This document shows, in pieces, positions 17,824-20,690 of a DNA stretch of 64,000 bases. The position numbers were made by a program, and so were the translations under genes. The notes beneath the pieces are model-generated. The model was not told the origin of the DNA. It saw only the letters and a program-made list of their open reading frames with translations, and searched no databases. The DNA is from Bacteroidetes bacterium GWF2_38_335 (GTDB lineage: Bacteria; Bacteroidota; Bacteroidia; Bacteroidales; GWF2-38-335). Numbering within the stretch: the first letter of the stretch is position 1; each line of letters opens with the position of its first letter. The stretch spans positions 1 to 64,000 of the forward strand of contig MEOH01000028.1 in the NCBI GenBank assembly GCA_001769535.1, in the 5' to 3' direction.

Positions 17824-17886
17824 GCAAACACATTATACCGAAAAGCCCGCTCGGTTTTGAGCAGGCTTTTTTGGTTGGTTTTATTC
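17824..17886 (+). terminator. Terminator, copy A of a direct repeat
   Basis: AGCCCGCTC pairs with GAGCAGGCT (one mismatch) around GGTTTT, followed by TTTTTT. It ends the GyrI gene. The same roughly 60 bases recur at 18083-18142. Confidence 0.75.
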
Positions 17887-17899
17887 TTTGGTGGTCCCC

Positions 17900-18056
17900 T
17901 ATACCGAAAAGCCCATTGGGCCCAACGTCCTTGCGAGGAGCGAGAAAAAGCATTATAGTTTACAAATAAGTTTTTGCGACGAAGCAATCCCCCAATAGTG
18001 CCCATGGGCTCCATCAGGAGATTGCTTCGTTCCTCGCAATGACCCGGTTCTATTTG
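17900..18056. mobile_element. Decayed inverted-repeat element between duplicated terminators
   Basis: TTGCGAGGA and ACGAAGCAATC on the left are mirrored by GATTGCTTCGT and TCCTCGCAA on the right, the pattern of the widespread non-coding CGTCATTGCGAGGAGCGA-type repeat. The left arm carries an AT-rich insertion. TATACCGAAAAGCCC before it repeats the start of the terminator copy A, so the region was built by duplication. No coding sequence; it fills most of the 409-base gap before the lipoprotein gene. Confidence 0.55.
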
Positions 18057-18082
18057 AATTCTTCGACGCCCCGCATCCCTGT

Positions 18083-18142
18083 CAAACACATTATATTAAA
18101 GCCCGCTCGGTTTTGAGCAGGCTTTTTTGGTTGTTTTTATTA
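18083..18142. repeat. Copy B of the terminator direct repeat
   Basis: AAAGCCCGCTCGGTTTTGAG and the following bases match copy A at 17824 almost base for base. Its T run is on the plus strand, so for the minus-strand lipoprotein gene it is at best a weak terminator. Confidence 0.7.
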
Positions 18143-18213
18143 TTGCCGTTCCCTATTCACCGCTCCAAGTTACAACTTCTATTACGACCAGAGGGAGTAT
18201 ACTTGAAGCTGTT

Positions 18214-18972
18214 TTAGGGTTTTGTTGGAACATTTTGGGGTTCAGAGTCAACAAAATCACTAATAACTAAAGTGGAATCAATAAGAACACTTTTTTTAAA
18301 ATAATTTGCTTTAAAGATTTGATTTTTTTGAATATACAGCACACAAGAATCATATGGTTTATTCTCAATACCAGTATACCATTCTTCTCCAGTAAAATAA
18401 TTCTCTTGAAAATAACCTACTTTATTATCAACTATCCATTTACCAGTTTTTCTATTAAAAATATCATAATTATTTATTTCACTTTGATTAGGGGTAAACT
18501 CTGTAAAAATTTTAGAGAAGTAAATCTCTTTTTCATCAATTAAAGCATATAATACAACCAAATACTTGTCTGTTAATTTTTTAACAAAAATACTACCATT
18601 CATTTGCGTATTTATTTTTGGAGTTTCAATATTCCCTTTAGTAAAATATTTTAAATTAAAATTATTTAAGCTAGTGTTTTTTATATTAATTATAGAGTCA
18701 CAACATGAAATTTGAAACATTAACTCCTCTATATAGGAGGAATTTGGCGTACCGTAATCATAATTGTAAATATAATGAAAAACAATGTTATTCCCTACTT
18801 CTCTTTGTTTAATTGAATCCTTTGAAATTGAACAGTTCTTGTAAAAATAATACTTACCTGAACCAATTTTAGGTTCATCTTCAAGGTTTTTTTCAATATT
18901 TGAGTTTTTTCCTGAACAAGATATTAGGACAGGTAATAGAATAACTAATATTTTTTTAAAATAACTATACAT
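18214..18972 (-). CDS. Lipoprotein, candidate immunity protein for the RHS-tip toxin
   Basis: 252 residues with signal and lipobox (LPVLISCSG), so it should be lipid-anchored in the envelope. I recognise no family. It starts nine bases after the stop of the RHS-tip gene, same strand, in the place where immunity genes follow polymorphic toxins. The sequence is strikingly AT-rich and rich in Asn, Lys and Ile compared with its neighbours, a sign of transfer. An immunity role is inference from position and localisation; an envelope-anchored immunity protein would fit a toxin acting in the periplasm. Alternatively an unrelated lipoprotein. Confidence 0.6.
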   Translation of the reverse strand: MYSYFKKILVILLPVLISCSGKNSNIEKNLEDEPKIGSGKYYFYKNCSISKDSIKQREVGNNIVFHYIYNYDYGTPNSSYIEELMFQISCCDSIINIKNTSLNNFNLKYFTKGNIETPKINTQMNGSIFVKKLTDKYLVVLYALIDEKEIYFSKIFTEFTPNQSEINNYDIFNRKTGKWIVDNKVGYFQENYFTGEEWYTGIENKPYDSCVLYIQKNQIFKANYFKKSVLIDSTLVISDFVDSEPQNVPTKP

Positions 18973-18981
18973 TTCAATAAC

Positions 18982-19920
18982 TTATTGTATTTTACTTTTT
19001 TTCTTATGCTCCTCATATTTTTTTATAGCTGCATCTATTACTTTTAACGTTTTTCCAGCTGGACTATTTTTTGGAATATCTTCAATTGGTGGTGATTTAC
19101 CACTATTAATGGCATCAAAATACTCGTTGAAAAATTTAAGGTTTTCATAAAAATTAAAATAATCAATATGGTCTTTATTTGGCTCCGTTTCTTTTTTCCC
19201 TGCTAGCTCTCTCATTAAATGTGCTTCAATTTCATGGAAAAATGTGGCAGTCGATTCTCTTAAGCCTTGCTTTATTCTATTCATGCTAATTGCAACCATG
19301 AAAATTGTTTGTCCATTTTCATATGTTTCCATTATTTCATCCTCAGTCATACCCGACATTTTAATAAGATTATCATTTTTGTGCAAAATTTCCATCTCAT
19401 CTTCAGTTTTATACTTTTTATCTCTTAATTCCCTTGATTGTTGCACATAATTATGCAATGACTCAACAGTAATACCATTTGCATTTCCTTTATACTCACC
19501 TTTATAAAAAGTTGTGAAAAGAACTATTTGCGTACTTTCTTTTTCTTTTTTAGAAATTTCATCAATCTTTGATTTTAATGTTTCACTATTTTCAACAACT
19601 GTACGAATAGAATAACCCCAATGAAGAAACCTAAAGGAATAGATTAATTTCTCTAATCCTTCTAATTCAACAAATGCAATAGTACTGTTCTCACTAAACG
19701 CATAAGGCGAGTTCCAAGGATACTTTGCCGCCAACGGGTCAACAGCAAAGAACCGTCCAATCCTATTATCAGAGATTCTGTATTTGAAAAACGAGTGGCT
19801 TCCAGTCTGCCCAGCAATTTCATTTTCAGCTTCCTGGCCTTGAAATCCGAATCCGTACCCTCTCGCGTAAAACTGAGTGTTTTCAAAGGTTTCAGAAAAT
19901 TGAGGGGTTAAATTTTGCAT
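18982..19920 (-). CDS. Orphan RHS-repeat C-terminal tip with unidentified toxin-like domain
   Basis: 312 residues. Residues 20-85 are the hyperconserved RHS core end (FGFQGQEAENEIAG, GRFFAVDPLAAKYPWNSPYA, VELEGLE), which in full RHS/YD-repeat proteins precedes a variable toxin domain. Here the rest of the RHS shell is absent: an in-frame stop lies seven codons upstream of the ATG. Residues 86-312 are a domain I cannot name; it holds FFHEIEAHLM (HExxxH) and a later DHIDYF, which could bind metal. It looks like a displaced toxin cassette, either silent, a recombination donor, or expressed as a free tip. Followed at nine bases by the candidate immunity lipoprotein. Confidence 0.8.
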   Translation of the reverse strand: MQNLTPQFSETFENTQFYARGYGFGFQGQEAENEIAGQTGSHSFFKYRISDNRIGRFFAVDPLAAKYPWNSPYAFSENSTIAFVELEGLEKLIYSFRFLHWGYSIRTVVENSETLKSKIDEISKKEKESTQIVLFTTFYKGEYKGNANGITVESLHNYVQQSRELRDKKYKTEDEMEILHKNDNLIKMSGMTEDEIMETYENGQTIFMVAISMNRIKQGLRESTATFFHEIEAHLMRELAGKKETEPNKDHIDYFNFYENLKFFNEYFDAINSGKSPPIEDIPKNSPAGKTLKVIDAAIKKYEEHKKKSKIQ

Positions 19921-20169: not shown

Positions 20170-20478
20170 TTAGTATTCTTTCGGCTCCCTGCTTGTATGT
20201 CTGACCCTTAAAATATATATTCTCTCAGTTGTGATTTTATAAGCTATTCTGTAACTGTATATAATAAAGGATCGGTATGAGCCATCATTATTTGTTTTAA
20301 GTTTATCAGGTTCAAAAATCCAAGGATCTTTAGCAAGTTTTTTTGCTGTTAACAATATAGTGTCTTTTACCTTTTTTGCTCCCTGAGGCGATTCTTCTTT
20401 TACATAATTGAAAATATCCATTAATTGTCCAGCTGCCTGAACATCCCAAACAACTGTATATTTCCTCGTTTTTACCAT
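20170..20478 (-). CDS. RelE/ParE family toxin
   Basis: 102 residues, the usual size. The pattern TVVWDVQAAGQLMDIFNYVKEESPQGAKKVKDTI, then YRSFIIYSYRIAYKI and a final ILRVRHTSREP, fits the RelE/ParE fold; the conserved C-terminal R..HTSR segment is present. Members either cut ribosome-bound mRNA or block DNA gyrase; the ParE-like group is likelier here but not proven. It overlaps the antitoxin gene by seven bases, the normal antitoxin-first order. Confidence 0.85.
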   Translation of the reverse strand: MVKTRKYTVVWDVQAAGQLMDIFNYVKEESPQGAKKVKDTILLTAKKLAKDPWIFEPDKLKTNNDGSYRSFIIYSYRIAYKITTERIYILRVRHTSREPKEY

Positions 20479-20690
20479 TTAGCGGTTGCTTTTTCAAGGT
20501 CTTCCTGAGAAATGAATTCACCTTTCTCAATCCTCTCTTCAGCTTGCTTCAGTTCTTTATTATATCGGGCAACACTTATTCTTTCTGCATTGATAAATGA
20601 TTTTATCATACTCAGAACAGATTCTTTTTGTGACCTGTTCAGCATCCTCAGGTATATACTAAGTTCCTTCTCTATTGTGTGGCTTTCCAT
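20472..20690 (-). CDS. Antitoxin of RelE/ParE-type pair
   Basis: 72 residues, mostly helical. The C-terminal half (RYNKELKQAEERIEKGEFISQEDLEKATAKW) matches the toxin-wrapping region of short Bacteroidota antitoxins in this family; the N-terminal half (EKELSIYLRMLNRSQKESVLSMI) is a helical segment without an obvious DNA-binding motif. It precedes the toxin and overlaps it by seven bases. Autoregulation is expected for the family but no operator stands out upstream. Confidence 0.75.
   Translation of the reverse strand: MESHTIEKELSIYLRMLNRSQKESVLSMIKSFINAERISVARYNKELKQAEERIEKGEFISQEDLEKATAKW

What the first reader, a model, noticed from the sequence alone, without database searches (positions are those of the whole stretch)
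18214..19920. Orphan RHS tip with a candidate lipoprotein immunity partner
The RHS core end (GRFFAVDPLAAKYPW) fused to a 225-residue unknown domain, without the RHS shell, sits nine bases before an AT-rich lipoprotein gene. Displaced tip plus immunity cassettes are known for polymorphic toxins as a store for tip swapping (established for Rhs and CDI systems). The unknown domain and the envelope-anchored partner could be a new toxin/immunity pair acting in the periplasm.
Basis: partly seen in the sequence, partly recalled or inferred. Interest (0 to 1): 0.75.

Follow-up and report, generated by a model that had tools for sequence, protein, structure and literature searches.

The report
Orphan Rhs tip with lipoprotein partner
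A bacterium carries a spare, shell-less warhead of an Rhs-type toxin, probably a zinc protease-like domain from a family not yet catalogued, next to a membrane-anchored protein that probably protects the cell from it; relatives in two other bacteria have the same layout.

Summary
ORF 18982-19920 (-) is an Rhs core end plus a ~225-residue tip; nine bases on is a 252-aa lipoprotein gene. The tip matches nothing in Pfam, NCBIfam, PADLOC or PDB, and nothing credible in PHROGs.

Two true tip relatives were found. One, on Aureibacter plasmid pAT2, is both the tip of a full-length Rhs and an orphan copy. All share HExxxH-L plus a downstream D-H, so a zinc-peptidase-like tip is likely but unproven. 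Each is followed within 40 bp by a signal-peptide or lipoprotein gene, yet the three partners are unrelated by sequence.

The genome holds two full-length Rhs genes and three other orphan tips. One full-length locus shares the core (84% DNA) and the sequence after its partner gene (82%), so cassette exchange is possible; the 3' element also occurs away from Rhs genes.

The orphan-cassette reading is well supported; periplasmic toxin/immunity is a good but untested inference. The lipoprotein has a tip-less paralog with distant secreted relatives in housekeeping neighbourhoods. Verdict: a new tip family in a known architecture.

The parts
19657..19920 (-). Orphan start (MQNLTPQFSETFENTQFYARG) plus C-terminal end of the Rhs core (residues 1-88)
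   Evidence: TIGR03696 match residues 22-89; 80-83% aa identity to C27 full-length and C10 orphan; DNA aligned; the stretch from 5 bases before the ATG is shared (85%, 83 bp) with another orphan at C27:359960
18982..19656 (-). Tip domain (residues ~89-312), candidate zinc-peptidase-like toxin
   Evidence: No Pfam/NCBIfam/PDB/PADLOC match, no credible PHROG match; homologs in A. tunicatorum pAT2 (blastp E 1e-9) and G1002 (E 2e-22)
19219..19236 (-). HEIEAH (HExxxH) motif, residues 229-234
   Evidence: H, E, H and the following L invariant in the three homologs
19168..19173 (-). D-H pair, residues 250-251, candidate third metal ligand
   Evidence: Invariant in the three homologs
18214..18972 (-). 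Lipoprotein, candidate immunity partner (252 aa)
   Evidence: 9 bases after the tip gene; lipobox-like LISC at residues 16-19; paralog at G000:C22:1710-2462 (blastp E 6e-16)
18916..18927 (-). Lipobox LISC, residues 16-19
   Evidence: Sequence; by inspection, not experimentally tested
18066..18241 (-). 3' flank shared with the C27 full-length Rhs locus and the C10 orphan; also a dispersed intergenic element
   Evidence: 82% over 152 bp to the sequence after the partner gene of the full-length Rhs; also near the C10 orphan, and at C24 and (part) C16 without Rhs

Best explanation
This is an orphan Rhs C-terminal tip with its immunity gene, of the kind left by C-terminal displacement. The tip is a zinc-peptidase-like toxin of an uncatalogued family (HExxxH plus a downstream Asp-His). 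It would be deployed only when recombination puts it on a full-length, Sec-exported Rhs shell; the C27 full-length locus shares both flanks. Once delivered it would act in the envelope of the neighbouring cell, and the lipoprotein would block it there. Shown: anatomy, relation to full-length Rhs, homologs in two other bacteria, motif conservation, exported neighbours. Inferred: metal binding, peptidase activity, toxicity, immunity, site of action, reactivation by recombination.
For: (1) Core 80-83% identical to a full-length Rhs and another orphan in the genome. (2) Six Rhs-core loci in the genome: two full-length (2950 and 2588 aa, N-termini resembling Sec signals) and four orphans. (3) Pairwise blastp of the tips: window-G1002 E 2e-22, window-pAT2 1e-9, pAT2-G1002 2e-10. 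(4) On pAT2 the same tip is on a full-length Rhs and, 8 kb on, on an orphan with the same partner protein WP_309943303. (5) G1002 has five orphan Rhs tips in tandem, the relative among them. (6) H, E, H and D-H are invariant across the three homologs at 22-31% identity. (7) 14 of 17 inspected Rhs-tip neighbours look exported by a crude hydropathy rule, against 37% of background ORFs; three other tips with classical HExxH (G1002 t1, t2; G001 L039) also have exported neighbours. (8) Both cassette ends align with the C27 full-length locus, with identical runs of 26 and 25 bp.
Against: The partners of the three homologous tips are unrelated by sequence, so no single immunity family travels with the tip. 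The lipoprotein has a tip-less paralog, with distant relatives without Rhs. The 3' flank element also occurs away from Rhs genes. HExxxH is an unusual spacing, and AlphaFold2 without an alignment gave pLDDT 49, so the fold is undetermined. The export statistic uses an ad hoc rule and hand-picked neighbours. No toxicity data exist.
Confidence: 0.6

Rival explanations
1. The tip is an inert displaced remnant, and the lipoprotein alone is kept under selection as defence against relatives that carry this toxin.
For: The orphan has no secretion part; orphan tips with immunity genes are proposed as a defensive strategy in bee gut bacteria (PMC8125069); a tip-less paralog of the lipoprotein exists.
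Against: The tip frame is intact, keeps its HExxxH motif and begins with an ATG whose surroundings are shared with another orphan, so it is not visibly decaying. In S. alvi many orphans are transcribed and toxic (PMC5727410).
Confidence: 0.2
2. The tip is a toxin but not a metallopeptidase: the conserved H, E, H and DH serve another chemistry (for example a nuclease or another hydrolase).
For: No fold could be assigned, and only three sequences define the motif.
Against: H-E-x3-H followed by a conserved leucine, in a predicted helix after a strand, resembles zincin active sites (low-confidence model); HExxxH is a proven zinc site in dipeptidyl peptidase III (PMC3268031); exported partners argue against a cytoplasmic nuclease.
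Confidence: 0.25
3. The lipoprotein is an ordinary envelope protein that happens to lie downstream, unrelated to the tip's activity.
For: Its paralog C22 links to a ~175-aa secreted protein beside nth and acetyltransferase genes, and to MORN_2 proteins, with no Rhs in the 3-kb stretches read; the three partners share no sequence.
Against: Nine-base spacing, same strand, AT-rich like the tip, and an exported gene in the same place after both homologous tips and after most other tips.
Confidence: 0.15

Closest known systems
Orphan Rhs tip/immunity modules formed by C-terminal displacement (Jackson 2009; Koskiniemi 2014; Snodgrassella alvi arrays, PMC5727410)
   Same: Short Rhs core end plus variable tip plus downstream small gene, in a genome that also has full-length Rhs with the same core
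   Different: Here the orphan is not in an array directly behind a full-length gene but alone on another contig, in a genome whose Rhs shells have Sec-like signals; the partner is a lipoprotein
Tox-MPTase 1-5 and Tox-HopH1 metallopeptidase toxins (Zhang et al. 2012, PMC3482391)
   Same: Putative metallopeptidase tips on Rhs shells, some in Bacteroidetes
   Different: Those carry HExxH and are listed without immunity proteins; this one has HExxxH and an exported neighbour, and no Pfam match
Imm65, lipoprotein immunity of Tox-JAB-1 (PMC3482391)
   Same: Immunity protein with an N-terminal lipobox; described there as the only apparent lipoprotein in that collection
   Different: Our lipoprotein has no significant Pfam match and is paired with a different tip
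Dipeptidyl peptidase III (M49)
   Same: HExxxH zinc motif
   Different: Only the motif is compared; no sequence match, third ligand not established here, and not a toxin

Membership tests
Rhs orphan toxin/immunity cassette | Rhs core end in front of a variable tip | tested here: met
   TIGR03696 match; 80-83% identity to other cores
Rhs orphan toxin/immunity cassette | No Rhs shell on the gene, while full-length genes with the same core exist in the genome | tested here: met
   318-codon open frame; full-length genes at C27 and C1
Rhs orphan toxin/immunity cassette | The tip also found on full-length Rhs proteins | tested here: met
   A. tunicatorum WP_309943305
Rhs orphan toxin/immunity cassette | Cognate immunity gene directly downstream | tested here: inconclusive
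   A same-strand exported gene is there, but protection is untested and no partner family is shared
Rhs orphan toxin/immunity cassette | Tip is toxic | not testable with these tools
   Needs expression
Tox-MPTase 1-5 / classical zincin toxins | HExxH motif | tested here: not met
   The motif is HExxxH in all three homologs
Tox-MPTase 1-5 / classical zincin toxins | Match to a catalogued toxin peptidase model | tested here: not met
   No Pfam or NCBIfam match to the tip
Zinc metallopeptidase with HExxxH | Zincin-type fold and third ligand | tested here: inconclusive
   pLDDT 49, no informative fold match
Bacterial lipoprotein | Signal sequence ending in a lipobox cysteine | tested here: met
   MYSYFKKILVILLPVLISC, LISC at 16-19; by inspection only

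The most novel reading that the evidence does not exclude
A new family of periplasm-acting Rhs toxins built on an HExxxH zinc site, whose immunity proteins have been recruited independently from unrelated envelope proteins; in this genome the partner derives from a secreted protein family of the host, possibly mimicking the toxin's own target.
Probability: 0.15. Interest if true: 0.65.

Novelty: new member of a known kind. Interest (0 to 1): 0.42.

Why it matters
Metallopeptidase tips of Rhs proteins were listed without immunity proteins in the main survey (PMC3482391). If these exported partners neutralise them, it explains how cells that secrete Rhs proteases into the envelope survive, and gives a testable rule: peptidase tips go with periplasmic or lipoprotein partners. 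The tip is also a new, apparently rare family with an unusual zinc-like motif.

Tried and rejected
Scans of genome contigs (two) and viral contigs (two) with the tip or its alignments found no relatives. Weak genome hits at E 1e-3 to 1e-2 were inspected where the frame could be read (a Tc-toxin-like protein in L021; a thioredoxin-like protein, an acyltransferase-like protein, an epimerase-like protein and others) and taken as chance; for some of them one search printed no convincing matching frame, so they are set aside rather than disproved. Structural comparison of the poor tip model gave only unrelated top rows (Arp2/3, ribosomal proteins) and is not used. I considered the 3' flank as a specific recombination site and rejected that: it also occurs downstream of genes with no Rhs nearby. 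I considered the lipoprotein as a conserved partner of the tip family and rejected it: the three partners are dissimilar.

Full report
OBSERVATION. The window's minus strand carries ORF 18982-19920 (312 aa) and, 9 bases after its stop, ORF 18214-18972 (252 aa). Residues 22-89 of the first match the Rhs-associated core model TIGR03696 (E 1.8e-5, 25.2 bits, under its curated cut-off of 32.5). Homology settles it: 83% identity over the core to an orphan on contig C10, and 80% to a 2950-aa Rhs on C27 of the same genome. The frame is open for only 318 codons in all, so there is no hidden shell upstream. The tip, residues ~89-312, matches nothing in Pfam, NCBIfam, PDB or PADLOC and only insignificantly in PHROGs. 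GC falls stepwise from core (42%) to tip (29%) to lipoprotein (25%). The second protein begins MYSYFKKILVILLPVLISC, a lipoprotein signal by inspection.

SAME GENOME. The window is contig C28 of a 5.27-Mb, 29-contig genome. It has six Rhs-core loci. Two are full-length: a 2950-aa gene on C27 and a 2588-aa gene on C1, both starting with a Sec-like signal (by inspection). The others are orphans: this one, a 260-aa one on C10, and 329- and 333-aa ones on C27. The C10 orphan and the two C27 orphans lie beside genes with signal-like N-termini, in one case on the opposite strand. The full-length C27 gene is followed 30 bp on by a 220-aa lipoprotein-like gene. The leader MQNLTPQFSETFENTQFYARG is shared from 5 bases before the ATG with the orphan at C27:359960 (85% over 83 bp), so the two orphans share a start and not only a core.

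SWAP POTENTIAL. The core DNA is 84% identical over 170 bp to the C27 full-length gene, and the sequence after the lipoprotein is 82% identical over about 152 bp to the sequence after that gene's partner. The longest identical runs are 26 and 25 bp. Exchange of tip plus partner by recombination on both sides is therefore possible, not shown. The 3' element is also found downstream of genes at C24 and, in part, C16, where no Rhs lies in the 9-14 kb examined, so it is at least partly a dispersed intergenic repeat.

HOMOLOGS OF THE TIP. Searches by single sequence or profile over roughly 1,100 related genomes at most (the samples overlap) and 72,556 plasmids gave two true relatives. The first is Aureibacter tunicatorum plasmid pAT2: a full-length Rhs (7,173-bp gene) carries the tip, followed 39 bp on by a 194-aa protein with a signal peptide-like start; about 8 kb downstream the tip recurs as a short Rhs gene with the same partner accession, WP_309943303, and repeated recombinase genes, followed by further Rhs-type cassettes. 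The second is genome G1002, where five short Rhs tips lie in tandem, the fourth being the relative, followed 2 bp on by a 178-aa lipoprotein-like gene. Pairwise blastp without the core gives window-G1002 29% identity, E 2e-22, and pAT2-G1002 E 2e-10. Window-pAT2 gives 24%, E 1e-9; that alignment includes the last six or so residues of the core.

MOTIF. In the three-way alignment the invariant residues include H229, E230, H234, L235, E246, D250 and H251 (window numbering). HExxxH is unusual: the catalogued Rhs metallopeptidase toxins have HExxH (PMC3482391), but HExxxH is a true zinc site in dipeptidyl peptidase III (PMC3268031). I take a zinc-peptidase-like activity as the likeliest function. 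No fold supports it: AlphaFold2 without an alignment gave pLDDT 49 and its matches are uninformative.

PARTNER. All three homologous tips have a same-strand exported gene within 40 bp. These partners are not detectably related: window versus G1002 and pAT2 versus G1002 by blastp, and the pAT2 partner gave no hit to the window lipoprotein. Across 17 Rhs-tip neighbours that I picked by hand in four genomes or records, 14 pass a crude export rule against 37% of background ORFs (binomial p about 2e-4). The rule is mine, was not calibrated, and the set includes one opposite-strand gene and membrane proteins, so the figure is indicative only. One failure, G1002 tip 5, has a signal-like stretch further in. 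Three tips with a classical HExxH (G1002 tips 1 and 2, one G001 tip) also have exported neighbours.

The window lipoprotein has a paralog at C22:1710-2462 (30%, E 6e-16) that is not beside an Rhs gene in the 14 kb read, although it lies near a contig end. The paralog, not the lipoprotein itself, links significantly to a ~175-aa secreted protein found beside nth and acetyltransferase genes, and to MORN_2 proteins. A search of 295 genomes of the order with the lipoprotein alone found only the paralog and weak hits.

INTERPRETATION. The displaced-tip reading is well supported and follows the C-terminal displacement model known from enterobacteria and Snodgrassella (PMC5727410, PMC8125069). Lipoprotein immunity is known but rare: Zhang et al. 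call Imm65 the only one in their collection, and note that immunity proteins of surface-acting L,D-peptidase toxins are partly secreted or membrane proteins. So an exported partner for an envelope-acting peptidase fits established logic. What is new is the tip family with its HExxxH signature and the exported partners beside peptidase-like tips, which that survey lists without immunity proteins. Toxicity, immunity and site of action remain inferences.

Noticed in passing
window 20170-20690 (-): A ParE-type toxin gene (PF05016, E 3e-12) with a 72-aa likely antitoxin lies 250 bp upstream of the tip. Of eight ParE matches in this genome and its one held congener, three lie within about 1.5 kb of an Rhs core piece (window; G001 C164; G001 C140), and other small toxin-antitoxin-like pairs sit by Rhs pieces at C10 and G001 C169.
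   Followed up: partly
L042 3646-6706 (G001 C169): An Rhs core fragment and a toxin-antitoxin-like pair lie between an intact carbon-nitrogen hydrolase-like gene and a repeated piece of that gene's start, as if an insertion had duplicated part of its target (by eye).
   Followed up: no
L056 15504-29065 (pAT2): A block of HTH regulator, CHC2 zinc finger protein and two tyrosine recombinases is repeated after each copy of the tip-plus-partner pair, suggesting mobile-element duplication of the cassette.
   Followed up: no
L034 7200-7871 (C10): The partner of the C10 orphan tip is a MORN_2 repeat protein with a signal-like N-terminus (PF07661 E 1.4e-11); the window lipoprotein's paralog also shows a distant MORN_2 link.
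   Followed up: partly
window 17825-18144: A hairpin-like repeat (AAAGCCCGCTCGGTTTTGAGCAGGCTTTTTTGG) occurs twice here and at several other places in the genome.
   Followed up: partly
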